Assembly (NCBI RefSeq): GCF_008124885.1
Contig: NZ_VNHX01000005.1
Span: 124,001-188,000, forward strand
Length of the DNA stretch: 64,000 bases
Direction: 5' to 3'
Source: Sphingobacterium allocomposti
GTDB taxonomy: Bacteria > Bacteroidota > Bacteroidia > Sphingobacteriales > Sphingobacteriaceae
Part shown: positions 8,927-34,386 of the stretch, in pieces
Numbering within the stretch: position 1 is the stretch's first letter
Layout: every line of letters starts with the position of its first letter
The notes under the pieces: model-generated
Seen by the model: the letters and a program-made list of their open reading frames with translations, nothing else
Told to the model about the DNA's origin: nothing
Databases searched by the model: none
Position numbers and translations under genes: made by a program

Positions 8927-8953
8927 TCCTTAAATTACGTCCTTTATATTTGT

Positions 8954-13318: not shown

Positions 13319-14032
13319 TTATCTTTTTAAAAGCTTAAAAATTTCATTTGCGATCAACTCATGCCCTAAGCGATTAGGATGGTTAACGTGCGACATGAGC
13401 GGTGCTATCGTTCCCTTGTCTTTAAATACGGATTCAAACGCCGTGTAAGAATCAGCAACGGGCAATCCATATTTTACCGCTAACTTTCTAACTTGCTGGG
13501 CATGCTTGCTCAGCAGATTTCCCGTATTTCCCATATCTTGCCGCTGATCGGGCGACGGTGTGAGTAGCACAACCGATTTGTCTTGTGCTTTTGCCTCCCT
13601 AATCATTTGTTCCCAGGCCACATGCGCCCGTTCCAAACCCAATCCTAAATCATTCAGCGCGTAGTCAATAAATATCACATCCGGCCGATGAGGCAATACA
13701 TCGGATGTGAACCTGGCAGCACCTTTTTCAGCATGTTCTCCACCAATCGATGTGGTAATGATGTTAATCACCGCTTTTGGGTATTCTTTCTTTAGCAGAC
13801 TAAGTAGGATATAAGGATAAGAATCTAACGTATGCACTTCCTGATTCGACCAATAACCAGATGGAACGGAATGTCCATGGAAAACAAGATTTATCGTTCG
13901 GTTATGCGGAAAGACCTTCGTCAGCTCCTGTTTCAGTGCTGCGAGATTATCTATAGCGCCTTTTTGTGCATTGGCATTGATAGCCAAGCACATAAAGAAA
14001 CAAAATGTATAAAAAAATACTTTCTTCAACAT
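13319..14032 (-). CDS. exported SGNH/GDSL-family hydrolase
   Basis: A 237-residue protein with a signal peptide (ending INANAQ, residue 23). SGNH blocks are visible: block I FHGHSVPSGYW (GHS in place of GDS, with the nucleophile Ser), block III-like DYALNDLGLG (Asn) and the C-terminal MSHVNHPNRLGHE (catalytic His). Such proteins are usually carbohydrate acetyl-esterases when they occur in glycan loci. It would remove acyl decorations before GH3/GH140 action (inference). It is 15 bp from the 840-residue protein gene upstream and 34 bp from GH3 downstream. Confidence 0.82.
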   Translation of the reverse strand: MLKKVFFYTFCFFMCLAINANAQKGAIDNLAALKQELTKVFPHNRTINLVFHGHSVPSGYWSNQEVHTLDSYPYILLSLLKKEYPKAVINIITTSIGGEHAEKGAARFTSDVLPHRPDVIFIDYALNDLGLGLERAHVAWEQMIREAKAQDKSVVLLTPSPDQRQDMGNTGNLLSKHAQQVRKLAVKYGLPVADSYTAFESVFKDKGTIAPLMSHVNHPNRLGHELIANEIFKLLKR

Positions 14033-18073: not shown

Positions 18074-18088
18074 TTAACGCACTAAGTT
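18074..18088 (-). promoter_or_regulatory. putative GntR operator in front of the isomerase operon
   Basis: The plus strand reads TTAACGCACTAAGTT. It lies 16 nt before the isomerase ATG and ends 9 nt before the -7 box, so it sits right at the expected transcription start. It is one of three near-identical sites with the same geometry (others at 19363 and 33051). Confidence 0.75.
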
Positions 18089-18097
18089 ATTTCACTT

Positions 18098-18129
18098 CAA
18101 ACATAATCATTAAATGATTATTTCACAAA
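18098..18129 (-). promoter_or_regulatory. promoter of the isomerase operon
   Basis: The minus strand has -7 TATGTTTG (18105-18098) and -33 TTTG (18129-18126) with a 20-nt spacer, a close match to the Bacteroidota consensus. The spacer contains a perfect inverted repeat of 8-bp arms around one base (TAATCATT/AATGATTA, 18104-18120), which could be a second regulator site. Confidence 0.72.
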
Positions 18130-18155
18130 AAAAATCCAACTATTTTATTTCGTCT

Positions 18156-19358
18156 TTAAAACAATGCTTTAATCCGGGGGAGAAACACCAAAAAAAGGAG
18201 AAAACCTAGGGGATACATTAACCCTGCCGTGACCCATAACGGTGTATACGAATAGCGTGTCACGATTTCTCCGATAAACGGGTTTATCAACAAACTAGAC
18301 AACGCACCCGCAGTGCCGGACAGCCCTACGACGGTCGATGTCGCTTTACTTCCGAAAATATCGGAAATAGCGGTAATATAGTTCGTAATCCAAAATCCAT
18401 GTGCAAATAGCAACAACGTTAGTAAGGCTATGGCAAACTGATAAGACCCGACGAACGCGATAAAAGGTGCACAGAGTGTCAATCCCGCCGCTATTCCCAT
18501 AACCCATTTCCTTGCTTTATTGATGGAAACACCTCGCTGTATTAATTTGTCAGATATCCAACCGCCAAAGATGTTCGAAATTCCGAGTGCCAAAAAGGGA
18601 ATCCAGAACAAATCGCCGATACGTTCAAACGACATCCCTCGATATTCGCTTAGGTACTTAGGCACCCAAAACATTAAGAAATACAAAACCGGATCAAGCA
18701 AGAATCGTATACTGACAAAAACCCATAAATATTTGTTTTTCAAAATGCTTGCAAAAGAAACACTTGGAGATACGATCTTTTCTCTTTGCGTACCGATATA
18801 TCTTTTCCAGGGAATCAGAAACCAGCCAACCACCCAAATCATCCCAACGATAGCCGGAATAATAAAGCTTGCTCTCCAACCAAAGCTAGAGGCTACATAG
18901 ATGGTTAAAGGTGGCGCCAAAACGGCACCGATTGCTGACCCACCAATGGCAATACCGTTGGCCATTCCTCTTTTCTTTTCGTCGAACCATTCATAAACGA
19001 CCTTCGCCGCTCCGGGGAAACACCCACCTTCTCCGAAGCCTAAGAGAAACCGGAAAGCAATTAACTGGTAGAAGTTCTGCATAACTCCGTGCAGAAAACA
19101 AGCGATAGACCAGATCAATACCGCCAGTCCCAGACCAATTTTTCCACCGACAGTATCGATAATACGTCCCCCTATGGTAAACATTAACGCATAACTGACC
19201 AGAAAACTCGTATTTATCCAACCATATTGTACATCTGTAATGTGGAATTCCTCCTGGATTTTAATTATTGTCATGGACAAGACTTGCCTATCCAAAAAAT
19301 TTAATCCTGTCGCAATAAAGACCAGGACCAACACTAACCATGCTATTTTATTCTTCAT
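18156..19358 (-). CDS. MFS sugar-acid/sugar transporter
   Basis: A 400-residue inner-membrane protein with about 12 transmembrane segments and the major facilitator signatures: after TM1 GLNFLDRQVLSM, then GGRIIDTVGGKIGL (motif A-like), RFLLGFGEGGCFPGAAKV and the mid-repeat GGWISDKL. The pattern fits the anion:cation symporter group (hexuronate/ExuT- or DgoT-like), which imports sugar acids and related monosaccharides with protons or sodium. It probably takes up the product of the periplasmic enzymes. It has its own promoter and operator, divergent from gntR. Its stop lies 97 bp before the isomerase start, so read-through is possible. Confidence 0.9.
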   Translation of the reverse strand: MKNKIAWLVLVLVFIATGLNFLDRQVLSMTIIKIQEEFHITDVQYGWINTSFLVSYALMFTIGGRIIDTVGGKIGLGLAVLIWSIACFLHGVMQNFYQLIAFRFLLGFGEGGCFPGAAKVVYEWFDEKKRGMANGIAIGGSAIGAVLAPPLTIYVASSFGWRASFIIPAIVGMIWVVGWFLIPWKRYIGTQREKIVSPSVSFASILKNKYLWVFVSIRFLLDPVLYFLMFWVPKYLSEYRGMSFERIGDLFWIPFLALGISNIFGGWISDKLIQRGVSINKARKWVMGIAAGLTLCAPFIAFVGSYQFAIALLTLLLFAHGFWITNYITAISDIFGSKATSTVVGLSGTAGALSSLLINPFIGEIVTRYSYTPLWVTAGLMYPLGFLLFLVFLPRIKALF

Positions 19359-19362
19359 CTTG

Positions 19363-19377
19363 TTAACGCATTAAGTT
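19363..19377 (-). promoter_or_regulatory. putative GntR operator in front of the MFS gene
   Basis: The plus strand reads TTAACGCATTAAGTT. It is only 4 nt upstream of the transporter ATG and 9 nt downstream of the -7 box, so bound repressor would block both transcription start and the ribosome-binding region. Confidence 0.75.
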
Positions 19378-19386
19378 GCAGATCAT

Positions 19387-19416
19387 CAAACATAGTGAAC
19401 ACATTTGTTACACAAA
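19387..19416 (-). promoter_or_regulatory. promoter of the MFS transporter gene
   Basis: On the minus strand, -7 TATGTTTG (19394-19387) and -33 TTTG (19416-19413) are 18 nt apart. The promoter overlaps the divergent gntR promoter, so the two are likely to be co-regulated. Confidence 0.7.
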
Positions 19417-19434
19417 CTAATTATTTTATATTTG
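19404..19434 (+). promoter_or_regulatory. promoter of gntR
   Basis: -33 TTTG (19404-19407), a 19-nt spacer and -7 TATATTTG (19427-19434) lie 24 nt before the gntR ATG. This is an excellent Bacteroidota promoter match. Confidence 0.75.
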
Positions 19435-19458
19435 TAGCAGAATCGTTTTATATTATAT

Positions 19459-20199
19459 ATGGATCCCAAATTTATTCTCATCAGCGAAGAAATCATCAAA
19501 CGCATCAAAGAAGGCGATTTAGCGCCCGGCGATAAGGTTCCTTCGGAAAATGAGCTAATCAAAACCTTCAAAGTCAGCAACACAACGGCACGGAAGAGCC
19601 TCCTAAACTTAGAGACACTTGGTTGGGTACGCCGAATTAAAGGCAAAGGCACATTTGTACTTAATCGCACCGGTGACCACAAAATTGTTCGCACATTGGG
19701 TTCGGTCGAATCAACGCGGAGGGGGTTCAATGAAAGTTTATCACAAGAAGGGTTCGCGCCTAAAAATATTGTCATTGAAAAAACGATATTACAAGAGGGT
19801 ATTTCTACCATGATTCAACATAAACAACTGACGCTCGAAGGTCCGGTTTTGAAGATCCGCATTCTTCGTTATGCTGATGACGATATCCTGAAAGACGAAA
19901 CACGCTATATATCCCTTAAACAATGTCCCAAAATCGAGCGTGTCTCGCCCGAAATTTCTTTTTTCAAAACATACGAGCAAACCTATCATATCAAAATAAA
20001 AACGATAGAGCAAACGCTTAAGACAACGATATTTGACACCAACACGCCGGATAATTACTTTGAGAACGACAAACCTCTCCCTATTTTTATCCTGGATGGA
20101 GCTGTCATAGCAGAGGACGGAAACATCATTGAAATAGAACATTCTTTTTATAGCGGAGATAAATACCAGTTTGGCGTTATCGCGCACCCTAATTACTAA
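19459..20199 (+). CDS. GntR-family (UTRA domain) transcriptional regulator
   Basis: A 246-residue one-component regulator. The N-terminal winged helix (about 5-70) shows ISEEIIKRIKEGDLAPGDKV, PSENELIKTFKVSNTTARKS and GWVRRIKGKGTFV, which is diagnostic of GntR. The C-terminal UTRA effector domain (about 90-240) contains LEGPVLKIRILRYADDD and DGAVIAEDGNIIEIEHSFYS. It should bind DNA as a dimer and release it on binding a sugar or sugar phosphate. It is transcribed divergently from the transporter, and three matching operators in the surrounding locus are its likely targets. Its stop is one base from the stop of the convergent SGNH-GH5 gene. Confidence 0.93.
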   Translation: MDPKFILISEEIIKRIKEGDLAPGDKVPSENELIKTFKVSNTTARKSLLNLETLGWVRRIKGKGTFVLNRTGDHKIVRTLGSVESTRRGFNESLSQEGFAPKNIVIEKTILQEGISTMIQHKQLTLEGPVLKIRILRYADDDILKDETRYISLKQCPKIERVSPEISFFKTYEQTYHIKIKTIEQTLKTTIFDTNTPDNYFENDKPLPIFILDGAVIAEDGNIIEIEHSFYSGDKYQFGVIAHPNY

Positions 20200-20200
20200 A

Positions 20201-22579
20201 TCACTTCTCATTGACTTTCAAGTATTTTAAGAGTACTTTTAGCTGCGGACGATCTATCCCATCTCTTGGCTCTATCGCTAATTTGTACGTGTTCCACCAA
20301 GGTCCCGCAGCCCAGTATGTTCCATTCACGCCATTATCTTTGAGGTAGTTCAGCATATTATCAAGCGTCACCAACCAACGAGGATCATCATCGGGAACCC
20401 CGTATTCCCCGACAAAACCTTTTAAATTATTTTCTTTTAACCATTCTACAAACGGGCGTGCCCGAACAATACCTGTTTCTGGCGTTGTTCCTTCCTCGTC
20501 ATAGGTGCCTTTATATGTTCCGGAAGCGTCTTTATCAAAATAGAGATGCCCTTCAAAAATCAGGTTAGTGGATGGATCTACCAAATCTTTCAGTTTGCCA
20601 CTGGCTTGTTGCCAACGGTATGTCGAACTCCAACTATCGCCTCCTACCATAATCGGCGTATTCGTATCCATTTCCCGGATCTTAAAAATAGCCTGTTGCG
20701 CTATATTAAACCAAGGTACCGAATCTAACATGCCATGGGGTTCGTTCATCAATCCGTATGCCCAGATATTTTCTTTCGTGCGAAATTGTTCGGCAAGTTT
20801 TCCCCAGACATCTGCGAAGTGTTTGATGGGCAGATTGGCTGAACCGATAATTTCCCGAGTACCATTTACAAATCGACGTCCATAATTATGCATATCCAAG
20901 ATAACCCAGAGGTTTCTTTCCCGCGCGGCATCGACAAAAGCAGTCATTCTGGCTAGTTCCGCTTCATCCAAAGGGCCGTCCAACTCATGCTGTAGCCGCT
21001 CCCATAAAAATGGCAGGCGGAAAAGGGTTAATCCTTTTGATTTGAAGTAATCCAGTTCGGCAATGGTGGGATAGGTATAATCACGATTGTAAACGCCCGG
21101 TGTTTTCTGGTGCGCAAATTCAGCTCCCGCTAAGTTTACCCCAAAAGGAGCTTCATTACGATCCGGCATATTTAAGTCAGCCTTTACCAACCGAAAGCGG
21201 TGCGATTGCGGCTGATTAAACTGATATATTGTCTCCGGTAATGCTTTCGCCTGCTTTTCCAAATCCGTCTGGTGGGGTTTGTTTCTCAAATATGTCTCAA
21301 ACAGGCTATGGAATGTTTCGTAGCGGGCATCTTTTGACACCTGTAAAAAAGAAAGGTATTCCGAAATAAATGTTTTAATCGGCTCAAGATCTCCACCCCA
21401 TAGCTCTTTGGGAAGATAACTAAATTCTACAAATTTAATTTCTCTCAACTGCCGCTGTACATTACGATAAGCTACCGCTTCCTTAAAGACTTTTAATGCT
21501 TGTTGATACGGAGGTGTATTTTTTCTCTCTGCCAAATTTATACCTTTCACCAATTCCTCCTGTGTAAAATTGCCGATAAGGATATCATCGATCGTAAGCG
21601 CATACACACCCTCCTTTAAATCTTTTACCTGTAGTAATTGTGTATTAAAATCGCCTGTAAAAGGGACCAGGGTCAATGCATTTTCTACTTCGGGAGGTAC
21701 GGGAAAAGGCAGCCTTTCTTCCAGATAATCAAATGTCAGCTCTTCTCCCTGCCAGTTTAAATTACTGACCGAACCATATTTAACATCAACTACACCGTCC
21801 TCATCAATCGTAAGTGATGACACGTAACTAGATGCATTTATAGTCTTAAGAAAGGTGTAGGCCATCACAAAATGCCCTACGGATCCTGGATGGACCCTAT
21901 CTTGGCCGACAAGGGTAGATTTAATATCTTCTTGCTGTAGCTTGGCGTTGATTGCATTCATCATCGTCCAGTAATCAATTACCATGACCTTGTGTTTCTT
22001 TGCCAACTTATCGATGATTTTACCGCATCTTTCCAATGCATCATTTACGCCCACCAAGTTGACAGCAGTCAAATCTCCGGTTTGATCATAGATGCTCGGT
22101 TTCTGTAAGATTATATTCGTTTTTGTCCGTTTTAAACGCGTCAAAAACGAATCGTAATACGATTCAAAATCTTTCAACGCTCTCTCCTTCCGTTGCTGAA
22201 TATCCGGCTCATTTTGTTTTTCCGGCGCGTACAAACCCCGATTGACATCGTTCATCCCCGCCATGACGATAGACCAGTCTGCTTTATGTGGCACGATATC
22301 GGCATCCATCCTACGCAGGAAACTATTGGCGTTGTCACCTTTAATCCCCAGATTGTAAAAAGTGACTTTCTTGTCTGGAAAACGGGTTGCATAATACAGC
22401 AGAATATAATGATGAAAATCGCCATTGTGGGTAATGCTGTTTCCGATAAACGCAATCTTATCTCCCGATTTGAATAGACTGTCCTCTTTCTTTTGTGCAT
22501 AGACACTGCCGATAAGGGTTATCAACACCCATAAGAACATCATCTTAAAACCGTATTTTACATACACATGCTTCATCAT
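20201..22579 (-). CDS. SGNH esterase-GH5 glycosidase fusion
   Basis: A 792-residue two-enzyme protein with a signal peptide (ending VYAQ, about 29). The first part (about 40-260) is an SGNH hydrolase: block I IAFIGNSIT (Ser48), the Gly block NLGIKGD, the Asn block GMNDVN and DRVHPGS with the Asp/His pair. A helical linker region (about 340-460) follows. The last part (about 475-790) is a GH5 barrel with acid E613 in MNEPHG and nucleophile E725 in FVGEYGV. It probably deacylates and cuts the same beta-glycan outside the inner membrane. It overlaps the DUF5017-like gene by 4 bp and is last in the SusC/D operon. Confidence 0.9.
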   Translation of the reverse strand: MMKHVYVKYGFKMMFLWVLITLIGSVYAQKKEDSLFKSGDKIAFIGNSITHNGDFHHYILLYYATRFPDKKVTFYNLGIKGDNANSFLRRMDADIVPHKADWSIVMAGMNDVNRGLYAPEKQNEPDIQQRKERALKDFESYYDSFLTRLKRTKTNIILQKPSIYDQTGDLTAVNLVGVNDALERCGKIIDKLAKKHKVMVIDYWTMMNAINAKLQQEDIKSTLVGQDRVHPGSVGHFVMAYTFLKTINASSYVSSLTIDEDGVVDVKYGSVSNLNWQGEELTFDYLEERLPFPVPPEVENALTLVPFTGDFNTQLLQVKDLKEGVYALTIDDILIGNFTQEELVKGINLAERKNTPPYQQALKVFKEAVAYRNVQRQLREIKFVEFSYLPKELWGGDLEPIKTFISEYLSFLQVSKDARYETFHSLFETYLRNKPHQTDLEKQAKALPETIYQFNQPQSHRFRLVKADLNMPDRNEAPFGVNLAGAEFAHQKTPGVYNRDYTYPTIAELDYFKSKGLTLFRLPFLWERLQHELDGPLDEAELARMTAFVDAARERNLWVILDMHNYGRRFVNGTREIIGSANLPIKHFADVWGKLAEQFRTKENIWAYGLMNEPHGMLDSVPWFNIAQQAIFKIREMDTNTPIMVGGDSWSSTYRWQQASGKLKDLVDPSTNLIFEGHLYFDKDASGTYKGTYDEEGTTPETGIVRARPFVEWLKENNLKGFVGEYGVPDDDPRWLVTLDNMLNYLKDNGVNGTYWAAGPWWNTYKLAIEPRDGIDRPQLKVLLKYLKVNEK

Positions 22580-23478
22580 TCAGGTACTATCGTAATTTCA
22601 AATTCCCGCACCACGGATTTGTAATCGTCGGCACTCGCATTCGAAGCCAAAAAAGCAACGTGATAGGTTCCCGGAGTCGTATATGTATAGGAATAATCCG
22701 AAAGAAGATTGGAACCTATATTTTGAATTGGAGTCCCTGTATCCGGCGGCACCTTTGTAAAATAGAGCGGCTTTGTAATCAGCCAATCTTCACTGGGATC
22801 CGCATTACGACCACCACCGATAATCACCACATCGGTTGCCCGGATGGTCCATACAGAAGCAGGGTTCAGCACATCAATGATGCTCCAACCGGCATTTACG
22901 CGGTCGGCCACTGGAATTTCTGAACCATCAGGAAGCTCCGTAACAGCCTGCAATTCGCGGACAATCCAATTTCCAGGTACGGTAATGGGATCTTTTTCGC
23001 CTACAAATTTGAACGCTATAAAAAAAGGCTTTTCGGTATCGACCCATGGCGACAAATCCAAGTAATCTGATTCGACAATTGTCGGATTTGTTGCGATATC
23101 AACCTGCGAAGTGACGTCTGTCCAGGTTGCCTGCGCAATTCCTTCCGCCGTAAGTTCTTCCAAATCATTACTCACCATTAATCGAAGCGATTCTAATTGA
23201 TTCCCTCCCCCTCCATACTGCGTGATGACCTTGGCTTTAGGAATGCCGCCTTCCACCTGCGTACGTTCTCTGAACCTATAGTCGGCACCGGGCAAGCCGG
23301 AATAGAAAGTGATGTTATCGGGAGCTCCGAAAAATTCAAACCGAATAGTGTCTCCTACCTTATAGGTGGTCTTGCTCAACCTCACCTCAAAATCGGGCTG
23401 GTCTACTTGCAGATTCTTTTCACAGGATACCAAGCCAATAAAAAGAACCATGGACAGGATGTGATGTATATACTTCAT
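22576..23478 (-). CDS. DUF5017-like surface lipoprotein of the glycan locus
   Basis: A 300-residue lipoprotein (lipobox LVSC, Cys19). The sequence resembles the DUF5017 group found beside SusD: FEVRLSKTTYKVGDTIRFEF, GAPDNITFYSGLPGADYRFR, then PWVDTEKPFFIAFKF. The end has a PKD/Ig-like strand pattern (YSYTYTTPGTYHVAFLASN). Such proteins are thought to be surface glycan-binding proteins; no enzyme motif is visible. It follows susD by 17 bp and overlaps the SGNH-GH5 gene by 4 bp, so the two products are made together. Confidence 0.75.
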   Translation of the reverse strand: MKYIHHILSMVLFIGLVSCEKNLQVDQPDFEVRLSKTTYKVGDTIRFEFFGAPDNITFYSGLPGADYRFRERTQVEGGIPKAKVITQYGGGGNQLESLRLMVSNDLEELTAEGIAQATWTDVTSQVDIATNPTIVESDYLDLSPWVDTEKPFFIAFKFVGEKDPITVPGNWIVRELQAVTELPDGSEIPVADRVNAGWSIIDVLNPASVWTIRATDVVIIGGGRNADPSEDWLITKPLYFTKVPPDTGTPIQNIGSNLLSDYSYTYTTPGTYHVAFLASNASADDYKSVVREFEITIVPE

Positions 23479-23495
23479 AATTAAGTCTTAAAAAA

Positions 23496-25097
23496 TTAAT
23501 ACCCTGGGTTTTGTGTCAACGCTTTATTCAAAGACATATCATACGTAGGAATAGGCAGCAACACGTTTCTGTCGGAGACATTTCGCGAACCGAGCACATG
23601 TCCCTCTACCCCCCCATTGGCCAATGCCCATGTGATGTATGCTTTCATATCTCCTACAAAATTTCCCCACCTGATCAAATCTGCGCGGCGCGATGCCTCG
23701 AAACAAAACTCCCTGGCTCGCTCATCTCTTATAGCCTGTCTAAACTCATCTTTTGATAGCCCAGATAAGTCGGCATTTACATTTGGGTTAGGCGGCTGAG
23801 GCAGTAGAAGCCCGTATGCGCGTCTTCTCACCTCGTTGATATAGGGATACGCATTAACCGGTCCGTTCAATTCATTTTCTGCTTCAGCAGCCATGAGCAA
23901 GATGTCTGCGTAACGTAAAATCGGAAAATTCTGAGGTGAGGTAGAAATATCTTTAGGTGACACGACCTCGTATTCACGTCGCCATTTGCCCATGTTCCTT
24001 CTCCATCGATCATTATTGGGTGTTTTTACGCCCGGCGTACCCACATAGGTGTAAGGAGCCAAGTTCCAGTCACGTCTTAAATCATATGAATCTTTCAGCG
24101 GTACGGTTGTGCTATTAGGATCAAGTTCATAAAGATCGAACAATTTACCGCTACCGTTGATTAACCCTCCGCTACGTCCAAGTTCAGCATCCTGCGTCCG
24201 TATTCCCCCTCTCGCCCCTATATAGTAAGTATACTCTTGCATAGCACCCTGCGTATTTCCATAAAATTCGACTTCCCAAATACTCTCCCGGATATCGTAT
24301 TCATCCTTTGCATATTTAATAAATACATCAGTATAATCGGGATTCAGGCTATGTAATCCTGAATTTTTTACAGCTAGCGCCCATTTTAGAGCATCAGCAT
24401 ACTTGGACTGGTCCATCAAAGGATACCCCGCCATCTTGAGATAGACCCTCGCCAACACGCCTTGTACAGCAGACCGCGAGACCCTTCCTCCAAAATTCAC
24501 GGTCTTCTCGGTATTACCCCCTTCCACTTCGTCTACCAATTGCTCGGCCTCCAGCATATCCGCCACAACCAAATCGTAAACTTCTTTCATAGGCGTTCTC
24601 GGCACATCCATTTCATTGATGGAGGGTTTGGCGCTTAGATACAAAGGAATATCACCGTAATTGCTTACTAACATGAAATAGTAATATGCCCGTAGAAACA
24701 AGGCCTGCCCCTTTATCCTGTTTTTAGAGCCATCGTCCAAATCCGTACCGTCTACCACATCCAAGATAAGATTGGCGCGATATACACCTGTATACAAGGC
24801 TTTCCAAAAATCAGTTACGTTTGCTTCCGCCGGGCCGTATATATATACAGTAGCATTGGCAGACCCGGTATTGGTGTATTCGATATCCGTACTTACATTG
24901 AGCCAATATGGCCACACATCGCCGTAAAATGTCCGATTTCCAAGGATGTCGTACACTCCGGCAAGTGCCAGTTCAAAATCGTTGACCGTCTCATAGGAGG
25001 GTGTTACAAAGTCAGTAGGTTTTGTGTCGAGAAAATCTTTGCACGAAGATGTTCCTATCAACAGTGCAATTAAAATATAAGTGAATCTCATCATCAT
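23496..25097 (-). CDS. SusD/RagB-family nutrient-binding lipoprotein (second pair)
   Basis: A 533-residue lipoprotein (lipobox ending Cys19, GTSSCKDFLDTKPTDF). It has the SusD helical TPR-like scaffold: RIKGQALFLRAYYYFMLVSN near the front and the C-terminal RQAIRDERAREFCFEASRRA then DLIRWGNF, ending in the family tail LTQNPGY. It acts as the surface lid that captures oligosaccharides for the partner SusC. Its start lies 5 bp after the stop of the upstream susC gene. Confidence 0.94.
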   Translation of the reverse strand: MMMRFTYILIALLIGTSSCKDFLDTKPTDFVTPSYETVNDFELALAGVYDILGNRTFYGDVWPYWLNVSTDIEYTNTGSANATVYIYGPAEANVTDFWKALYTGVYRANLILDVVDGTDLDDGSKNRIKGQALFLRAYYYFMLVSNYGDIPLYLSAKPSINEMDVPRTPMKEVYDLVVADMLEAEQLVDEVEGGNTEKTVNFGGRVSRSAVQGVLARVYLKMAGYPLMDQSKYADALKWALAVKNSGLHSLNPDYTDVFIKYAKDEYDIRESIWEVEFYGNTQGAMQEYTYYIGARGGIRTQDAELGRSGGLINGSGKLFDLYELDPNSTTVPLKDSYDLRRDWNLAPYTYVGTPGVKTPNNDRWRRNMGKWRREYEVVSPKDISTSPQNFPILRYADILLMAAEAENELNGPVNAYPYINEVRRRAYGLLLPQPPNPNVNADLSGLSKDEFRQAIRDERAREFCFEASRRADLIRWGNFVGDMKAYITWALANGGVEGHVLGSRNVSDRNVLLPIPTYDMSLNKALTQNPGY

Positions 25098-25102
25098 TTA
25101 CG

Positions 25103-28100
25103 TTAAAAAGTTGTGGTCAAACCAAAAGTTATTGTCCGGGCCAAAGGATATGCGGAAAAATCAAATCCGGGTGTCAACGCAGAATGCCGTACAGATACCT
25201 CTGGATTTGAACCTGAATAGGTTGTCCAAGTATGCAGATTTTGTGTCGAAGCATATAATCTAAGCGAGTTTACCTTCAAACGGCTTAACACATGATCTTG
25301 GAAAGTGTATCCCAAGGAGACCGTTTTGAGACGCAAGAATGAACCATCCTCTACCGTCCGGCTTGAGTAGTAGGTATCCCGTTGTCCACCCGTTCTAAAA
25401 AGTTCGTTACTAGGGTTCTCAGGCGTCCAGCGATTTTCGTAACTCGCATATTGATTTAAGGAACGGTGACGTTTTGCATTTCCCTCGAAAATCAATCTAT
25501 TTGCATTCAGAATATCATTTCCGTAAGACCATTGAAAGAATATATTCAAGTCAAAGCCTTTGTAATCAAAACGATTCGTAAAACCACCCACATGAATAGG
25601 CAATCCTCTTCCGATTACCGTAAAATCCATCTCGTTGACGGCCAAATCACCATTTATATCTTTATATTTGATATCGCCCGGTTGAATATTCTCCCGTGGT
25701 TGACCATTTGTAGTAATATGATCCTTTAATACATAGTTTCCCAGCACTTGATCAAAGTCATTATATTGGTAGACGCCATCCCATACCAATCCGTACATCT
25801 GCGCTAAAGGGCCTCCTACGACGGAAATGTAAGGGAACACATTTCTAAAATCGGTATCAAATGCTACCGGGCTCAGTAACGCTGTTTGGTTTTCGTTGAG
25901 AGCGATAATTTTATTTTGGTTAAAACTGATATTGAAATTTGTACTCCATTTAAATCTGCCATTATCGATATTGGTTGTATTTAACGTCAGTTCCAAACCT
26001 TGATTGCGCAGCTCTCCAATGTTTTTGTATGCAGTAGCCAAGTTGGTGGCGCTACTCGTCAACCCGGTAGCGTATGGAAGTGTCGCGTCTAACAATAAAT
26101 CTTTTGTATTTCTTCTATAGACATCTGCTACAAATTCAATCCTTCCTTCCCAAAAGGAGAGATCTAAACCGATATTGCTTTGGACGGTAGTTTCCCATGT
26201 TAAATCGGGATTACCATATTGCAAAAGCAATGCTCCACGTGTAGGAGCGGCGTTATTAAAGGAATACCCTCCAAATCTCGGAACACTCAACTGGGTAATA
26301 TACGGAAAATCTGATACCCGGTTATTCCCAGTAGCTCCATAACTCGTTCTTATTTTGGCATTATGCAAGAAAGAAACGTCTTTTAAAAAATCTTCTTCTG
26401 ACACGGTCCAGGCAAATGCTGCTGACGGGAAAAAGGCCCAACGCTTACCCGGCGCAAATTTCGAGGAGCCGTCGTACCTAAAGGAAGAGGTTAATCTATA
26501 TTTATTTTTATATCCATAGTTGAATCTTCCTAAAAACGACATCAAAGCCCATCTGGAAGATGATGAAAATCCAACATTCGTTCCCGCTTCATCCAAACCG
26601 TCTATCCCGAGTGATTCATTTAACACGTTCAAACCCTGGAAACCGTAATCTCCACTATCGTATTGCTGCAAAGAAAAACCACCGACAACATTGAGCGTAT
26701 GTCCTTGTTTGAAGGACTTTTTGTAGGTAAGAATATTTTCATTCACCCAAGTCGTTCTCGGGCGAAACGCAATCGAGCCGTTTACGCCTTCGTTACGTCT
26801 TATGTTTCCGTTTGCCGTTAGGGAATTGAAAAACATATCTTGCCGAACCATCACATTGGTGTAAGCAGCCGAAGATCTGAAAACGAGATTTGGATGAAAC
26901 GAATATTCACCGTATCCATTTAAAGTCAAGGTGTTCACAAAAGTTTCCCGAAGTTCATTTTGAGTAGACAAGATGGGGTTTACACGGAAGTCATTTTCGG
27001 GAGCCGTCGGATCAAACAGATCTTCCAGAAGCGATTCATTCAGACCTTTTACCGGCCGAAATCCCCACACCGAAGCAAGCAAGCTTAAACCACTATATGT
27101 AATGCGCATCGAAGGTTCTCCGACGATGATACCGTACGTTTTATTTGCGCTATAATTTGCGATCGTTCCGATCTTAAGTTTTTTACCCAATTGTTGGTCA
27201 AACTGAAATCGAAGCTGTTTTCTATCAAATCCCGAATTGGTGACCAATCCATTGTTTTTTAACAAATTTCCCGAAAGTGAATAGGTCGTACCTCCACTAC
27301 CGCCCCGCACAGACAATTCATGGTTGTGCACAAATGCTTGTTTATAGATCTGATCCTGCAAATCTATACTAGGTTCGTCCCGATAACTTTCCAATGTACG
27401 CCCTGCCAAATAATAATCAGTCGTAAACTGAGGCTCGAGTTCATACTGATACTTTACGAATTCATAAGCCCCCATCAATTTAAGAGGTTTCGGGTTTTCG
27501 GCGAAACCACCGTATGCATTATAATTTACCACCGGTTTTCCAGCTACCCCTTTTTTCGTCGTGATCATAATCACACCGTTTGCACCTCGCGCTCCATATA
27601 TTGCGGTTGCTGACGCATCTTTGAGTATTTCAATAGATTCAATATCTCCTGGGTTGATACTGTTACTATTGGCATCTTCTAAAGGGAATCCATCAACCAC
27701 GTAAAGCGGTGCGGTGTTTTGCGTGATAGAACCTGAGCCACGTATGACGATGTTGGTATTTGATCCAGGTTGTCCGTCACTAGCCGTTACGGTTACACCT
27801 GCCACCCGACCGGCCAAGGCTTCATCAAAGGATTTAACAGGTGCCTGAGCGAGGTCTTTCATATTAACAGAGCCGACTGATCCCGTCACATCTCGTCGGG
27901 TCGTTTCTCCGTAACCGATGACCACCACATCATCCAGTGCGGTAGATTTGGTCGCTAGGATAATATTAAAAAAACGTTGCTTCCCTATCTTTATTTCGAG
28001 TCTATCATACCCCAATGAAGAAAATACTAAAACAGCCTCCTCGCTATCTACGGACAGGGAAAATAAGCCTGCTGCATCAGTTTTCGTAGCGGTAGTCTGA

Positions 28101-28267
28101 TCTTTCACAGAAACACTTACTCCTGCCAATACTTCATTTTGTTGATTGACGACTTTTCCGGAAATCGGAATTGAACCTGACGTTTGCTGGGCATACGCCA
28201 AACTGTTGCACAACAGACCACAAAGCATCAGTTTGCAACTTATTAATGATATTATTTTCTTCATCAT
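25103..28267 (-). CDS. SusC/RagA-family TonB-dependent transporter (second pair)
   Basis: A 1054-residue outer-membrane transporter. A signal peptide (ending AYAQQ) leads to a carboxypeptidase-like N-terminal domain (about 35-110; ISGKVVNQQNEVLAGVSVSV). The TonB box/plug region follows (DDVVVIGYGETTRRDVTGSV, APLYVVDGFPLED, DASATAIYGARGANGV). The rest is a 22-strand barrel with a typical aromatic end (FGLTTTF). It should import the oligosaccharides captured by its SusD. It is the third gene of the operon that starts at 32941, 60 bp after the first SusD gene, with no clear promoter in the gap. Confidence 0.95.
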   Translation of the reverse strand: MMKKIISLISCKLMLCGLLCNSLAYAQQTSGSIPISGKVVNQQNEVLAGVSVSVKDQTTATKTDAAGLFSLSVDSEEAVLVFSSLGYDRLEIKIGKQRFFNIILATKSTALDDVVVIGYGETTRRDVTGSVGSVNMKDLAQAPVKSFDEALAGRVAGVTVTASDGQPGSNTNIVIRGSGSITQNTAPLYVVDGFPLEDANSNSINPGDIESIEILKDASATAIYGARGANGVIMITTKKGVAGKPVVNYNAYGGFAENPKPLKLMGAYEFVKYQYELEPQFTTDYYLAGRTLESYRDEPSIDLQDQIYKQAFVHNHELSVRGGSGGTTYSLSGNLLKNNGLVTNSGFDRKQLRFQFDQQLGKKLKIGTIANYSANKTYGIIVGEPSMRITYSGLSLLASVWGFRPVKGLNESLLEDLFDPTAPENDFRVNPILSTQNELRETFVNTLTLNGYGEYSFHPNLVFRSSAAYTNVMVRQDMFFNSLTANGNIRRNEGVNGSIAFRPRTTWVNENILTYKKSFKQGHTLNVVGGFSLQQYDSGDYGFQGLNVLNESLGIDGLDEAGTNVGFSSSSRWALMSFLGRFNYGYKNKYRLTSSFRYDGSSKFAPGKRWAFFPSAAFAWTVSEEDFLKDVSFLHNAKIRTSYGATGNNRVSDFPYITQLSVPRFGGYSFNNAAPTRGALLLQYGNPDLTWETTVQSNIGLDLSFWEGRIEFVADVYRRNTKDLLLDATLPYATGLTSSATNLATAYKNIGELRNQGLELTLNTTNIDNGRFKWSTNFNISFNQNKIIALNENQTALLSPVAFDTDFRNVFPYISVVGGPLAQMYGLVWDGVYQYNDFDQVLGNYVLKDHITTNGQPRENIQPGDIKYKDINGDLAVNEMDFTVIGRGLPIHVGGFTNRFDYKGFDLNIFFQWSYGNDILNANRLIFEGNAKRHRSLNQYASYENRWTPENPSNELFRTGGQRDTYYSSRTVEDGSFLRLKTVSLGYTFQDHVLSRLKVNSLRLYASTQNLHTWTTYSGSNPEVSVRHSALTPGFDFSAYPLARTITFGLTTTF

Positions 28268-28327
28268 TTAGCTATATTTGGTGTAATAAATCTATTTATA
28301 ATCTCATAGGTTAATGTCTTATACAAG

Positions 28328-29752
28328 TTAGTAGCCTTCATTTTGTCCTAATTCTGGATTGATATCAATCTCTCTACGTGGAATAGGAAATATCAATTCA
28401 TGGTTTTGCACGGTAAAATTTAAGCCCTTGCCCACAAAAAATGCATTCATGGTTTCCTGGGTTTTTCCTGTCCGCAACAAATCGAACCAACGATGCCCCT
28501 CATACGCCAGTTCCAGTCTTCTTTCTTTCGCTATGGATTCACGCATATCCTCTTTATTACTGATTTCCACCCCTTCCAGATCTGCGCGGGAACGGACCAT
28601 ATTGAGATAAGCCTGTGCTCCATTTACATCATCATCTTCATTCAATGCTTCAGCATACATGAGGAGGACATCGGCATAGCGTAAAACGGTAAAATTAACG
28701 GAACCATCTCTCGGGTTTTCTGCATTTAGATCCACAAACTTCAACCCGTGTCGGCTGTACTCTTTCACCCCATTGGGTCTAATCGTATCGCCTACGGAAG
28801 CTTTTTTCCTAGCATCGCCTTCCTCGTAAGCGTCCATCAGATCAAGCGACGGTGTAATTCGTCCAGAACCTTGCTGATTATTCGCCAATAGTCCCGTTGA
28901 AGCTGGGGTGAATAATACCGAGTACTCGTTCCCTTGGTTAAAACCAGAGATAAATTTTAATTCGAAGAGGGACTCCTTGGTATTACCATTTCCAGGACTA
29001 AAAAGAGTTTTGTAATCCGGTTCTAAACTATATACGTTTCTTTCAATTAAACTCCCCAACGTATGTATTGCCTCCGTATACTGGTGACGTGTTAAATAGA
29101 CTTTGCCTAACAATCCTTGTATGGCGCCCAAAGAAACCCTTCCTTTATCTTCTTGGGAATCATCAACTGCTAATTCTTCGGCCTCTTTCAAATCTTTGAT
29201 GATCTCAGTATATACTTCTTCCAGAGACTTCAAGGACAAGTCGGCATTGGCTATATCTTCTGGACTCCGAAATTCTCCGTGTGTGATAGGAGATCGTCCA
29301 AAAATTTGAACCATCAAAAAATAGCTGTATGCACGGATAAATTTTGTTTCGCTCGCAATTCTTGCTTTGCTTTCCATACTTAAGTCAGACTGCTCTAGCC
29401 GTACAAGTAGGATGTTTGCTCGCGCGATCGTAAATAAAACCTTTGTCCAAAACCCTTGAACAATCGTATTGGACGGTGTTATATTCATCTCGTCAAACTC
29501 CATTTCGGCAACGGAAGAGGAAGATATAGATACCTCAGCATTATCCGAAGTCAATTCGGCAAGATAGAAAATCTCATGCGTATATATCTCCCTAAAAGAT
29601 GCATATACGCCGACCAGCGCATTTTCGAAATCAGCTTCCGTTTTATAGAAATTATTTTCATTGATTTGATGTTCGGGTGAAAGCGCTAGAAAATTGTTGC
29701 AGGAGCTCAAAAAAAGCAGAGACAATGCAACACAAACAATATATTTTTTCAT
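28328..29752 (-). CDS. SusD/RagB-family lipoprotein (first pair)
   Basis: A 474-residue lipoprotein (lipobox LSSC, Cys18, followed by NNFLALSPEH). SusD features include ETKFIRAYSYFLMVQIFG, VNFTVLRYADVLLMYAEALN and RESIAKERRLELAYEGHRWF then DLLRTGK, ending ELGQNEGY. It is shorter than the second SusD (533), so the two pairs are not simple duplicates and may bind different parts or lengths of the glycan. It is 18 bp from the first susC. Confidence 0.94.
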   Translation of the reverse strand: MKKYIVCVALSLLFLSSCNNFLALSPEHQINENNFYKTEADFENALVGVYASFREIYTHEIFYLAELTSDNAEVSISSSSVAEMEFDEMNITPSNTIVQGFWTKVLFTIARANILLVRLEQSDLSMESKARIASETKFIRAYSYFLMVQIFGRSPITHGEFRSPEDIANADLSLKSLEEVYTEIIKDLKEAEELAVDDSQEDKGRVSLGAIQGLLGKVYLTRHQYTEAIHTLGSLIERNVYSLEPDYKTLFSPGNGNTKESLFELKFISGFNQGNEYSVLFTPASTGLLANNQQGSGRITPSLDLMDAYEEGDARKKASVGDTIRPNGVKEYSRHGLKFVDLNAENPRDGSVNFTVLRYADVLLMYAEALNEDDDVNGAQAYLNMVRSRADLEGVEISNKEDMRESIAKERRLELAYEGHRWFDLLRTGKTQETMNAFFVGKGLNFTVQNHELIFPIPRREIDINPELGQNEGY

Positions 29753-29770
29753 TTCAGTAAGATTATTGGG

Positions 29771-32700
29771 TTAACGGATATTCATTCTAATGCCTAATGT
29801 AAAGGTTCGAGGTAATGGATATGAAAAATAATCTATACCACTCGCAGCAATATTATCTCCCGTCGAACTACCTTCAGGATCATAACCGGGGTAATCCGTA
29901 AATGTATACACATTTGAGACATCAGCAAACATATCGATCGCGGGCAATTTGGAACGGAATATATTGGACGGCAACTTATATGCTAAATTGACATTCCGGA
30001 TACGGACAAATGAGGCTTCGAACAGATATCTGGAATTAATACCAATCCCTCTAGCATAATCATTCCGTATCGCTCTCGGCACAAATCCATTACCAGGATT
30101 TTCTTCCGACCTCCAGCGATCATTGACCAACGCCAGTTGATTTTGAACACCTGCTGAATTCATAATAATCTCTGCGCCTTGAAAATACATTTTCTGACCA
30201 TACGATCCCGTTAAGCTCACACCCAAAGAAAGGCTTTTATAGGTAAACTGATTATTGAATCCAAAAGTATATTTTGGCCACGGCGTGCCAACGAAGGTTT
30301 TATCATCGTCTGTAATCCGTCCATCACCGTTAGCATCATTAAATTTAAGATCGCCCGGTTGCGTGTTCGGATGCTGCAAAGGGCTAGCATGCACTTCATC
30401 CCAGTTTTTGAATACGCCTGTCGCTTCCAACAAAAAGAAACTTGAAATGGGCTGACCTACCTGTGTAGCTTGGTAGGCCGAACTTAATATCCTAGCAGAT
30501 GAAGTATTTAAGGCCAGAACCTTATTTCTATTGAAACTTACATTAAAATCGGTATTCCACTGAAAAGATCCGCTCGCTATGTTCCGTGTATTTAATGCAA
30601 TCTCCAAACCTTTATTTTCAAGCTCACCGATATTTTGCGTCACGGAACCAAACCCAGTAGCTGCGGGCAGTAACGTATTTAACAACAAATCCTTTTTCAT
30701 ATTGCGGTACGCATCCACTGTTAAGACTATACGATGATTAAATAGCGCCAGGTCGAGCCCAAAGTTGGTCTGTAAAGATCGCTCCCACGTTAGGTTTTCA
30801 TTGGCGAGGGTTTGCGGTGTCACACCAAGCAATGGTTGCCCATTACCGACATAAGGAACAATACCTAACAGCCCGATATGGGCATAATTTCCTATTAAAT
30901 TATTACCCGACGCGCCGTAACTCGCCCGCAGCTTCAGATCATCTATAAACGACAACGATTTCATAAACTCTTCATCTGATAACCTGTACCCTAAAGACGC
31001 GGAAGGGAAGGTACCCCAACGATTGTTAATCCCGAATCTCGAACTTCCATCCCGGCGTACAGTACCCGTTAATAACCATTTCCCCATAAAACTGTAGTTA
31101 ACCCGGGCTAGCCACGACAACATCGCCCATTCAGTGATATAATTCGTTCCAGCATTCACATTTCCACCCGCTAAATAAGGAATCAAATCCGTCGGAAAAT
31201 CCATCGCCCCAGCCTGCAGCATATTTAAGCTTTCTTTCTGCGCTGTAAACCCTACAACGGCATCTATTTTATGATCCTCTCCAAAGTTCGTCGTATAGTT
31301 CACCGTATTTTCATTTAACCAATTTAATAAAGCACTGTTGTGGGCACCTGCAGTTGCCGGGCTCGTTTTAGCACCCCACTCACCAATCTGCGATGATTTC
31401 CAGAGGCGGGTCGACCCAGTCACATAATTCACCCCTATGGACGTTTTTATCGACAATCCGTCTAAAAGATTATACTGAAGATAATTATTGGTAAAAATAT
31501 TCGCGGAATTCCGCTTATCACTGAATTCATCAAGGATTAAATAGGGATTCTCGACCAGTACACCTAATGGATCCAATAATTCTGAACTATAGGAACCATC
31601 GGCTTGGTAAATAGGCATCGCAGGCGAATTTGCCAGAGCAGCAGCAATTAACCCTCTTGTCCCCAAATGCCCTTCGGCACGTGCAAAATTCCCATGCGTA
31701 TAGGAACCCGCCAAGGATACACCAAGAGACAACCGATTAGATAACCTAATATCTATATTGGAACGCATATTATATTTATTGAAATCGGACTTTTTGATTA
31801 TCCCTTGTTGATTATAATAGCCTAAAGAAACCATATAATCTACCGACTCACCTCCGCCCGTCGTCGAAAGTTGATAATTCTGCAGTGGGGCCGTTCTAAA
31901 AATCTGATCCTGCCAATCTATATTCGTCGTTAATGATTCGGGATTACGAAACTCCGGGCGTACCCGCGTCCCCCCCGTTCTTACATCATTCGGATCTGAC
32001 GCATTCCCTCCCGCATAAACCCACGCGTTGTCTCGTCCCTCCGCATGAAATTCTGCAAACTCCTGCGCATTCATCATTTTCAACTTATTGGCCACGTTTT
32101 GAAAACCTCCCGCCGCTTCTAAATGAACGGTAGGGCTTCCTCTTTTTCCCTTTTTCGTGGTAACGATAATCACACCGTTGGCTCCTCTCGATCCGTAAAT
32201 AGCAGTCGCAGACGCATCCTTTAAAATTTCAATGGACGCAATATCAGAAGGATTGATACTACTCAACGGATTAATTTTAGAGGCGGTGTTATTGGCCATT
32301 CCTTCTGATGAATAGGAATTTCCATTAAAACTAGACACATCCGACCCACTTCCACCGGCACCAATGGCATAACCGTCAATTACATATAAAGGCTGGTTAC
32401 CACCCGTAATCGAATTAATCCCCCGAATAACGATATTTACATTCCCTCCCGGAGCCCCTGTCGTCTGGGTAATTTGCGCTCCGGCTACTTTTCCCTGCAT
32501 CATTTGATCGAAACTAGCCGCAGGTCCCGGTTGTAGGTCTTGTGGAGATAAACTAGTTACCGAGCCTGTTATGTCTCTTTTTCGCTGTGTACCATAGCCC
32601 ACAACAACTACAGAATCCAGACTCTCGGTAGATCTAATTAACTTTACATCGTAAGCACTTTCTTTTCCAACAACAATTTCAACAGGGTCGTAACCCAAGA

Positions 32701-32941
32701 AATTAAACCGTAACAAATCGCCCGTCTTTGCTTCTATCGAATATTCTCCCAAATTATTCGTACTCGCTGCCTGGCCACCGCCCGCAACTTTAATGGTTAC
32801 ACCCTGCAAAGGAGTTCGTATATTGGCGTCCAACACCCTTCCTGTAATGATACGGAGTTGCGCTGCTGCAGTAAAAACAGAAAGGCAGCATATAAGCAAA
32901 AGAGATCCACGTATCGTTTTGGTTAAACATTTTTCATTCAT
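29771..32941 (-). CDS. SusC/RagA-family TonB-dependent transporter (first pair)
   Basis: A 1056-residue outer-membrane transporter with a signal peptide (ending FTAAAQ), an N-terminal beta-sandwich (about 30-110; ITGRVLDANIRTPLQGVTIK), a plug with VVVGYGTQRKRDITGSVTSL, QPLYVIDGYAIG and DASATAIYGSRGANGVIIV, and a long barrel. Between the last two plug motifs there is an insertion rich in Gly/Ser (GAGGSGSDVSSFNGNSYSS) that the other two SusC proteins of the window lack. It is the first gene of the operon running to 20201 and is preceded by the promoter and operator at 33051-33106. Confidence 0.95.
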   Translation of the reverse strand: MNEKCLTKTIRGSLLLICCLSVFTAAAQLRIITGRVLDANIRTPLQGVTIKVAGGGQAASTNNLGEYSIEAKTGDLLRFNFLGYDPVEIVVGKESAYDVKLIRSTESLDSVVVVGYGTQRKRDITGSVTSLSPQDLQPGPAASFDQMMQGKVAGAQITQTTGAPGGNVNIVIRGINSITGGNQPLYVIDGYAIGAGGSGSDVSSFNGNSYSSEGMANNTASKINPLSSINPSDIASIEILKDASATAIYGSRGANGVIIVTTKKGKRGSPTVHLEAAGGFQNVANKLKMMNAQEFAEFHAEGRDNAWVYAGGNASDPNDVRTGGTRVRPEFRNPESLTTNIDWQDQIFRTAPLQNYQLSTTGGGESVDYMVSLGYYNQQGIIKKSDFNKYNMRSNIDIRLSNRLSLGVSLAGSYTHGNFARAEGHLGTRGLIAAALANSPAMPIYQADGSYSSELLDPLGVLVENPYLILDEFSDKRNSANIFTNNYLQYNLLDGLSIKTSIGVNYVTGSTRLWKSSQIGEWGAKTSPATAGAHNSALLNWLNENTVNYTTNFGEDHKIDAVVGFTAQKESLNMLQAGAMDFPTDLIPYLAGGNVNAGTNYITEWAMLSWLARVNYSFMGKWLLTGTVRRDGSSRFGINNRWGTFPSASLGYRLSDEEFMKSLSFIDDLKLRASYGASGNNLIGNYAHIGLLGIVPYVGNGQPLLGVTPQTLANENLTWERSLQTNFGLDLALFNHRIVLTVDAYRNMKKDLLLNTLLPAATGFGSVTQNIGELENKGLEIALNTRNIASGSFQWNTDFNVSFNRNKVLALNTSSARILSSAYQATQVGQPISSFFLLEATGVFKNWDEVHASPLQHPNTQPGDLKFNDANGDGRITDDDKTFVGTPWPKYTFGFNNQFTYKSLSLGVSLTGSYGQKMYFQGAEIIMNSAGVQNQLALVNDRWRSEENPGNGFVPRAIRNDYARGIGINSRYLFEASFVRIRNVNLAYKLPSNIFRSKLPAIDMFADVSNVYTFTDYPGYDPEGSSTGDNIAASGIDYFSYPLPRTFTLGIRMNIR

Positions 32942-32963
32942 AATGATTTATAATATAAATAGG

Positions 32964-32978
32964 TATACGCACTATGCA
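32964..32978 (-). promoter_or_regulatory. possible secondary operator in the susC leader
   Basis: The plus strand reads TATACGCACTATGCA, matching 11 of 15 positions of the main site at 33051. It lies between the transcription start and the susC ATG. It could be an auxiliary GntR site. Confidence 0.35.
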
Positions 32979-33050
32979 AAGCATCTATTAAAACTCCAAT
33001 TATTATAGTTTATATATATATTCGCGCGTCCACAATAAAAAAGAGATATG

Positions 33051-33065
33051 TTAACGCACTATGTT
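33051..33065 (-). promoter_or_regulatory. putative GntR operator in front of the susC-susD operon
   Basis: The plus strand reads TTAACGCACTATGTT, ending 9 nt before the -7 box. Sequence and spacing match the sites in front of the isomerase and transporter genes. It is 109 nt upstream of the susC ATG. Confidence 0.75.
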
Positions 33066-33074
33066 AGCACTAAG

Positions 33075-33106
33075 CAAACATATATATATTTTTTTTTTAA
33101 AACAAA
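33075..33106 (-). promoter_or_regulatory. promoter of the susC-susD-susC-susD-DUF5017-GH5 operon
   Basis: On the minus strand, -7 TATGTTTG (33082-33075) and -33 TTTG (33106-33103) have a 20-nt spacer that is almost pure A/T. The -7 box is identical to those of the isomerase and MFS promoters. Confidence 0.72.
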
Positions 33107-34345: not shown

Positions 34346-34360
34346 TTTTGTATTAAATTA

Positions 34361-34386
34361 AGTGTTTTACACTTTCGACACAATTG
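34361..34386. repeat. IS-end-like sequence beside the transposase start
   Basis: AGTGTTTTACACTTTCGACA then CAATTG sits 15 nt upstream of the transposase ATG. Read on the minus strand it resembles IS256-type ends (AATTGTGT...AAAGTGTAAAA). Its core AAGTGTTTTACACTT (34360-34374) is itself palindromic. A related copy in inverted orientation is at 34847-34871. Confidence 0.6.

What the first reader, a model, noticed from the sequence alone, without database searches (positions are those of the whole stretch)
18074..33106. Three promoters with identical operator, -7 box and spacing define a GntR regulon
Seen directly: the plus strand carries TTAACGCACTAAGTT (18074), TTAACGCATTAAGTT (19363) and TTAACGCACTATGTT (33051). 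Each is followed after exactly 9 nt by CAAACATA (the complement of -7 TATGTTTG) and, 18-20 nt further, by CAAA (-33). These promoters drive the isomerase operon, the MFS gene and the six-gene SusC/D operon. The operator covers the transcription start, which is ideal for repression. The divergent GntR/UTRA gene inside the locus is the obvious candidate. Control of a tandem SusC/D locus by a GntR repressor, rather than by a hybrid two-component system or ECF sigma factor, is less usual.
Basis: partly seen in the sequence, partly recalled or inferred. Interest (0 to 1): 0.78.

Follow-up and report, generated by a model that had tools for sequence, protein, structure and literature searches.

The report
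GntR operators across a sugar-uptake locus
A Sphingobacterium genome carries the same 15-base DNA signal in front of three gene blocks that are predicted to take up and digest a sugar polymer, a near-identical signal lies near one regulator gene in each of the 14 genomes of its family found to have that regulator, and the regulator is therefore predicted to bind it and likely keeps the blocks switched off until the sugar arrives.

Summary
Confirmed and extended. TTAACGCAYTAWGTT occurs exactly three times in the 4.39-Mb genome, all here, each 9 nt from CAAACATA. In 399 family genomes the strict form TTAACGCACTAWGTT is in 12 of 12 with the GntR ortholog (the window's included) and 0 of 387 without; two GntR genomes found afterwards carry it within 7 kb of gntR. 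The recognition helix SNTTARK is invariant in the 120 best of 643 homologues. Isomerase, MFS, GH42-like protein, esterase and SusC/D recur in five genera. In three Pedobacter/Mucilaginibacter-type genomes the site precedes an ECF sigma gene; two of them lack it at isomerase and MFS. Binding, repression and inducer are inferred. ManR and AusR are precedents, so this is a new regulon of a known kind, with a new operator and signs of rewiring.

The parts
18074..18088 (+). predicted operator of the isomerase operon (TTAACGCACTAAGTT), 15 nt upstream of the isomerase ATG (gene on - strand)
   Evidence: same 15-mer in all five sister species and before the isomerase of G158, genus g27
18098..18105 (-). 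predicted -7 box TATGTTTG of the isomerase operon; TTTG (-33) 20 nt upstream
   Evidence: promoter consensus recalled
19363..19377 (+). predicted operator of the MFS gene (TTAACGCATTAAGTT), 4 nt upstream of its ATG and 81 nt upstream of the divergent gntR ATG
   Evidence: same 15-mer in four of five sisters, degenerate in S. olei
19387..19394 (-). predicted -7 box TATGTTTG of the MFS gene; TTTG 18 nt upstream
19427..19434 (+). predicted -7 box TATATTTG of gntR with TTTG at 19404-19407 (19 nt apart)
   Evidence: conserved block in six species
33051..33065 (+). predicted operator O1 of the SusC/D operon (TTAACGCACTATGTT)
   Evidence: 15 of 15 columns invariant in six species
33075..33082 (-). 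predicted -7 box TATGTTTG of the SusC/D operon; TTTG 20 nt upstream
   Evidence: 8 of 8 columns invariant in six species
32964..32978 (+). second, weaker operator-like site O2 (TATACGCACTATGCA) in the SusC leader, 87 bp from O1
19459..20199 (+). GntR/UTRA (HutC-type) regulator, 246 aa; recognition helix SNTTARK at residues 40-46
18156..19358 (-). MFS transporter, 400 aa
16577..18058 (-). AraA/FucI-like sugar isomerase, 493 aa
14048..16570 (-). 840-aa protein without Pfam, NCBIfam or PDB sequence match; tentatively GH42/GH164-like fold
13319..14032 (-). SGNH/GDSL esterase
10951..13284 (-). GH3 glycosidase
9491..10918 (-). apiosidase-like protein
7211..9469 (-). gluconate-2-dehydrogenase subunit 3-like gene and GMC oxidoreductase, last two genes of the isomerase block
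   Evidence: same order in G014 and G023
29771..32941 (-). SusC 1
28328..29752 (-). SusD 1
25103..28267 (-). SusC 2
23496..25097 (-). SusD 2
22576..23478 (-). DUF5017 protein
20201..22579 (-). SGNH esterase-GH5 fusion, last gene of the SusC/D block

Best explanation
Three gene blocks of one glycan-type locus each have upstream the same site, TTAACGCAYTAWGTT, beside a predicted promoter, and the GntR/UTRA protein encoded among them is predicted to bind it and likely represses all three blocks until an imported sugar would release it. Shown: the sites, their uniqueness in the genome, their co-occurrence with this GntR in relatives, their conservation in otherwise diverged leader DNA, and the invariant recognition helix. 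Inferred: a GntR dimer sits on the imperfect palindrome TTAAC-N7-GTTAA just downstream of the transcription start and blocks initiation. At SusC a second site (O2) in the leader would add a roadblock; its distance to O1 varies between 87 and 101 bp without helical phase, which speaks against a rigid loop. Inferred: the inducer is the monosaccharide brought in by the MFS protein or its isomerised product, bound in the UTRA domain, so that uptake, depolymerisation and catabolism are switched on together.
For: Only three exact sites in 4.39 Mb. Strict motif in 12 of 12 GntR genomes and 0 of 387 others, Fisher p about 3e-23, not corrected for kinship. Two GntR genomes found later both carry an exact copy, with 0 control hits. 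In six relatives of four other genera, 16 of 16 sites with at most 1 mismatch lie outside ORFs over 200 aa and 15 of 16 have the start of an ORF of 100 aa or more within 400 nt; targets include isomerase, MFS, SusC and gntR itself. Site orientation relative to the gene is not fixed: opposite at SusC of G334 and G164 and at MFS of G123 and G078, as expected of a dimer operator. O1 15 of 15, -7 box 8 of 8 and O2 12 of 13 columns invariant in six species, against 48 of 213 elsewhere in the leader. Recognition helix invariant in 120 of 120 listed homologues (of 643) and in the 12 motif genomes of the family scan. Relatives with solved structure are the repressors DasR and YvoA.
Against: No binding or expression data. 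The S. olei MFS site is degenerate. In G1098 and G1069 no site with at most 2 mismatches stands before isomerase or MFS, and in G416, G1098 and G1069 none with at most 4 mismatches stands between gntR and the next SusC. Only G158 has a site (one mismatch) at the start of gntR; in Sphingobacterium the nearest is the MFS site 81 nt upstream, elsewhere none was found beside gntR. The six Sphingobacterium species are close kin, so the 12 of 12 rests on five genera, and the six-species leader comparison on about three diverged lineages (window, S. olei, the other four). The site is not of the GT-N-TA-N-AC type that I recall for HutC regulators.
Confidence: 0.87

Rival explanations
1. The GntR protein binds these sites but acts as an activator, or as a dual regulator, rather than as a simple repressor.
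For: In G123 and G078 the MFS site lies 156 and 165 nt upstream of the ORF start, where it could be an upstream activator site.
Against: In Sphingobacterium all three sites lie downstream of the predicted -7 box, a place that suits repression; the nearest solved relatives are named repressors.
Confidence: 0.1
2. Another regulator binds the motif and GntR is only a neighbour.
For: An AraC-type regulator (G334 by Pfam, its near-identical copy in G164) and an ECF sigma gene (G416, G1098, G1069) also lie beside copies of the site.
Against: Those genes differ from genome to genome. Among the 15 genes between 7.2 and 33 kb of the window, all scanned with Pfam, gntR is the only regulator; I did not list every regulator of the other loci. 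The strict motif is absent from 387 genomes without this GntR.
Confidence: 0.05
3. The conserved sequence is a promoter or RNA-leader element, not a protein operator.
For: In the window it always has the same orientation and a fixed distance to the -7 box.
Against: Orientation and spacing change in other genera; the sequence is an imperfect palindrome; it has no other exact copy in the genome.
Confidence: 0.03
4. The regulon is real, but O2 is an unrelated leader element (for example for translation or mRNA stability) that resembles the operator.
For: O2 lies close to the SusC start, shares with O1 mainly the core ACGCACTAT, and is not phased with O1; no second copy was seen at SusC of G334.
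Against: The 9-bp core is identical to that of O1 and kept in six species; S. olei O2 has only 2 mismatches in 17.
Confidence: 0.3

Closest known systems
AusR of Zobellia galactanivorans (GntR repressor of the alginate loci)
   Same: GntR-family repressor that keeps polysaccharide-utilisation genes off until an oligosaccharide releases it (PMC8286568, a review, passages read; original paper not held)
   Different: alginate system; operator and effector domain were not compared here
ManR (BT2103) of Bacteroides thetaiotaomicron
   Same: GntR-family regulator predicted by comparative genomics to control a monosaccharide pathway together with a SusC/D operon (PMC3878776, passages read)
   Different: mannose/mannoside pathway; no sequence comparison was made here
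YvoA/NagR of Bacillus subtilis and DasR of Streptomyces (HutC subfamily)
   Same: near full-length sequence match and matching wHTH and UTRA domains
   Different: about 25% identity; TM-scores only about 0.5 over the whole chain (0.76 for the DasR effector domain), so domain arrangement differs in the models; Asn41 stands where DasR has Arg in the recognition helix (alignment); their operators differ (recalled)
AraR (BT0354) of Bacteroides
   Same: one-component regulator reaching from monosaccharide genes to SusC/D operons, with tandem operators at one promoter (PMC4666351, passages read)
   Different: NrtR family, other DNA motif

Membership tests
GntR family, HutC subfamily | N-terminal GntR wHTH above Pfam cut-off | tested here: met
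   PF00392, 64.7 bits against 27
GntR family, HutC subfamily | C-terminal UTRA effector domain | tested here: met
   PF07702, 52.1 bits against 23.8; effector domains of DasR and PhnF matched in the model
GntR family, HutC subfamily | palindromic operator bound by a dimer | tested here: inconclusive
   imperfect palindrome TTAAC-N7-GTTAA; both 5-bp arms complete in sites of G158, G416, S. olei and the sister SusC sites, incomplete in the three window sites; binding not testable
named HutC equivalogs (TreR, HutC, PhnF, LSA1692) | score above the NCBIfam cut-off | tested here: not met
   best is LSA1692 with 96.8 bits against 275
Bacteroidota promoter | TTTG and TAnnTTTG about 19-21 nt apart (consensus recalled) | tested here: met
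   20 nt at isomerase and SusC, 19 nt at gntR; MFS has 18 nt, one short of the recalled range
one-component repressor of a polysaccharide utilisation locus (AusR/ManR type) | regulator gene linked to SusC/D with its site upstream of SusC/D | tested here: met
   O1 before SusC in six Sphingobacterium species and a site before SusC in G334 and G164
one-component repressor of a polysaccharide utilisation locus (AusR/ManR type) | release by a sugar ligand | not testable with these tools
   -

The most novel reading that the evidence does not exclude
One Bacteroidota-wide GntR lineage with an unchanging recognition helix owns a portable operator that evolution moves between tiers of control: directly onto SusC/D, isomerase and MFS promoters in Sphingobacterium, onto gntR itself in genus g27, and onto an ECF sigma gene in Pedobacter/Mucilaginibacter, where a one-component sugar repressor would sit above the classical ECF switch of glycan uptake.
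Probability: 0.5. Interest if true: 0.6.

Novelty: new member of a known kind. Interest (0 to 1): 0.47.

Why it matters
It turns a guess by proximity into a testable regulon with a precise operator. If the operator is right, it can be used to find the regulated genes of an uncharacterised glycan pathway in Bacteroidota genomes that have this GntR. It adds a case to those in which a cytoplasmic one-component repressor, not a hybrid two-component system or ECF sigma factor, controls SusC/D, and it offers a natural series of rewirings between the two designs.

Tried and rejected
Wider orthologs: draws of the phylum (395 genomes, E up to 1e-60) and class (325 genomes, E up to 1e-40) gave no GntR beyond the window's own; 149 genomes of the G416 genus gave no second one. 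So direct operator evidence stays within the family, and the wider reach rests on protein conservation alone.

Rigid looping between O1 and O2: rejected as the main model because the distances are 87, 88, 99, 101, 96 and 99. The extra GCACTAAG at 33067-33074 looked like a third SusC site but is absent from the sisters. A looser own-genome regulon: the three 1-mismatch sites lie about 140 nt before a 217-aa ORF, between two divergent ORFs, and inside a 530-aa ORF (which looked at 30 of the 31 hits, one having no locus); not pursued because the number of loose hits is close to the control. Substrate: not settled; GH5, GH3, apiosidase-like and esterase genes and, in G416, GH10, GH28 and AXE1 would fit an acetylated plant cell-wall glycan, but nothing decides it.

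Limits: the column frequencies come from sites preselected by pattern, so only the flanking columns are informative there. In one search two of the twelve family sequences were read on the wrong strand (G164, G078); one search corrects them, and the same fault makes the upstream stretches printed for these two meaningless. The gntR-start site of G158 touches the first bases of a mechanical (TTG) extension of the gntR ORF. The MFS upstream region of G416 was not in the fetched stretch. The 145 and 149 genomes overlap with the 399.
Full report
Observation. The three 15-mers and their 9-nt distance to CAAACATA are exactly as stated. The window has no other match with up to two mismatches. The whole genome, in 53 contigs, has no other exact match, three with one mismatch and 25 with two. 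The reversed control pattern gives 26 matches against 31 in total, so there is little excess outside the locus.

Gene content. The isomerase block reads AraA/FucI-like isomerase, an 840-aa protein without any family, GDSL esterase, GH3, apiosidase-like protein, gluconate-2-dehydrogenase subunit 3-like protein and GMC oxidoreductase. The MFS gene stands alone, divergent from gntR. The third block is SusC-SusD-SusC-SusD-DUF5017-GDSL/GH5. That each block is one operon is inferred from gene order. gntR encodes an N-terminal GntR domain and a C-terminal UTRA domain. Its model (mean pLDDT 87.9, pTM 0.71) matches DasR, YvoA/NagR and PhnF at E of 1e-13 or better, with whole-chain TM-scores near 0.5 and better agreement of the effector domain alone; sequence alone finds DasR and YvoA.

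Link between regulator and motif. In 399 genomes of the family, 12, the window's included, hold an ortholog at E up to 1e-20 (in the 59 relatives the next hits were near 1e-8). I scanned the 399 for TTAACGCAYWAWGTT: 68 sites in 45 genomes. The strict form TTAACGCACTAWGTT occurs in 12 of 12 genomes with the regulator and in 0 of 387 without; the 37 sites in 33 genomes without the regulator are all of other variants. In the coordinates every strict site lies on the contig of gntR, within about 24 kb of it. Kinship is not corrected for: six of the twelve are close Sphingobacterium species, and the rest fall in four other genera. As a check I then searched 145 genomes of the G334 genus and 149 of the G416 genus, partly the same genomes as before. 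Two new GntR genomes turned up. Both have one exact copy within 7 kb of gntR and a second with one mismatch about 680 bp away; control patterns gave none.

Targets in relatives. Sites with at most one mismatch in six genomes of four other genera number 16. None lies in an ORF over 200 aa, and 15 have the start of an ORF of at least 100 aa within 400 nt. Targets are the isomerase (G158, G123, G078, G416), MFS (G158, G123, G078), SusC (G334, G164), gntR itself (G158), a 384-aa protein with a weak secretion-tail match, an AraC-type regulator facing a sodium/solute symporter gene (G334, G164), and an ECF sigma gene (G416). In G158, G123 and G078 SusC follows the isomerase in the same direction, so it too would fall under the isomerase site. 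In G416, G1098 and G1069 the ECF sigma gene has a site 60 to 90 nt upstream, while isomerase and MFS of G1098 and G1069 have none with up to two mismatches, and none with up to four stands between gntR and SusC of the three. The simplest reading is a move of the operator from the structural genes to a sigma gene; this is inferred, and G416 keeps a one-mismatch site at its isomerase.

Footprint at SusC. The SusC gene of the window is 97% identical in DNA to that of S. haloxyli from 37 nt before its ATG, a stretch that begins at O2. The leader beyond is 45-52% identical to each of the five sisters in gapped alignment, while four of the sisters are 66-86% identical among themselves. The 556-bp stretch upstream finds in the five sister genomes only a short piece, 72 bases or fewer, that spans O1, the -7 box and the -33 region. 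Against this background O1 has 15 of 15 columns invariant, the -7 box 8 of 8, the 9-nt spacer between them 1 of 9, and the rest of the non-coding leader 48 of 213. A third conserved block, ATAGTGCGTA(A/T)AC, 12 of 13 columns, shares the core ACGCACTAT with O1 and lies 87-101 bp from it. I call it O2. It was not in the finding.

DNA recognition. The recognition helix S40-K46 (SNTTARK) is invariant in the 120 listed homologues of the protein search (643 in all) and in the 12 motif genomes. In the wing R59-T65 each residue is kept in at least 114 of 120. Homologues named by sources include Pontibacter, Dyadobacter, Spirosoma and Rufibacter. The lists of the best 120 GntR and 840-aa homologues share 15 longest-contig lengths (0.03 expected after jitter), which suggests that the pair travels together well beyond this family. 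I could not read DNA there.

The 840-aa protein. It has no match in Pfam or NCBIfam or by sequence in the PDB, and at least 2648 homologues at E up to 1e-20. Its model (mean pLDDT 79.9, below 50 in parts of the barrel) is nearest to GH42 galactosidases and GH164 mannosidase at about 10% identity and TM-scores near 0.4. It is tentatively a glycosidase of that architecture.

Mechanism. Bacteroidota promoters use TAnnTTTG and TTTG (recalled). The sites then lie just past the expected start, where a bound dimer would stop initiation or escape. The orientation of the site relative to the gene varies between genera, which suits a dimer site and not an RNA element. Binding, repression and inducer are inferred.

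Known work. GntR control of a SusC/D operon is predicted for ManR of B. thetaiotaomicron (PMC3878776, passages), and a review reports AusR as GntR repressor of alginate genes (PMC8286568, passages; original not held). The 2013 paper names SusR-like, hybrid two-component and ECF systems as the three types proposed for such loci. Paper searches and a search for the operator letters (0 papers) listed nothing that I recognised as this regulon; of the papers listed I read passages of three only, and subscription journals are mostly not held.

Verdict. A real, well-supported local regulon with an operator for which I found no earlier description, a second operator-like site at SusC that the finding lacks, and a sign of rewiring to an ECF sigma gene in relatives. 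It is a new member of a known kind.

Noticed in passing
window 14048-16570: Core regulon protein of 840 aa with no Pfam, NCBIfam or PDB sequence match but thousands of homologues and a tentative GH42/GH164-like fold; a candidate new glycosidase family.
   Followed up: partly
window 32945-33500: The SusC coding sequence is 97% identical to S. haloxyli, yet the leader drops to about 50% identity to every sister, with only O1, the -7 box and O2 well kept; the leader evolves or is replaced far faster than the gene.
   Followed up: partly
L148 18168-18731, L153 17000-17611, L156 16548-17111: ECF sigma genes downstream of a SusC/D pair with the GntR site upstream; in all three a second copy of the site follows the gene (one mismatch in L153), in L156 before a 269-aa protein without a Pfam match.
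   Followed up: partly
window 7211-9469: GMC oxidoreductase with gluconate-2-dehydrogenase subunit 3-like partner at the end of the isomerase block, of the kind recalled for 3-keto-sugar chemistry.
   Followed up: no
window 33100-34930: About 1.8 kb between the SusC operator and mnmE without an ORF over 113 aa; possibly gene remnants.
   Followed up: no
L065 around 9780-10016: In S. olei the MFS operator and -7 box are degenerate and the stretch between gntR and MFS is longer, so the MFS gene may have left the regulon there.
   Followed up: partly
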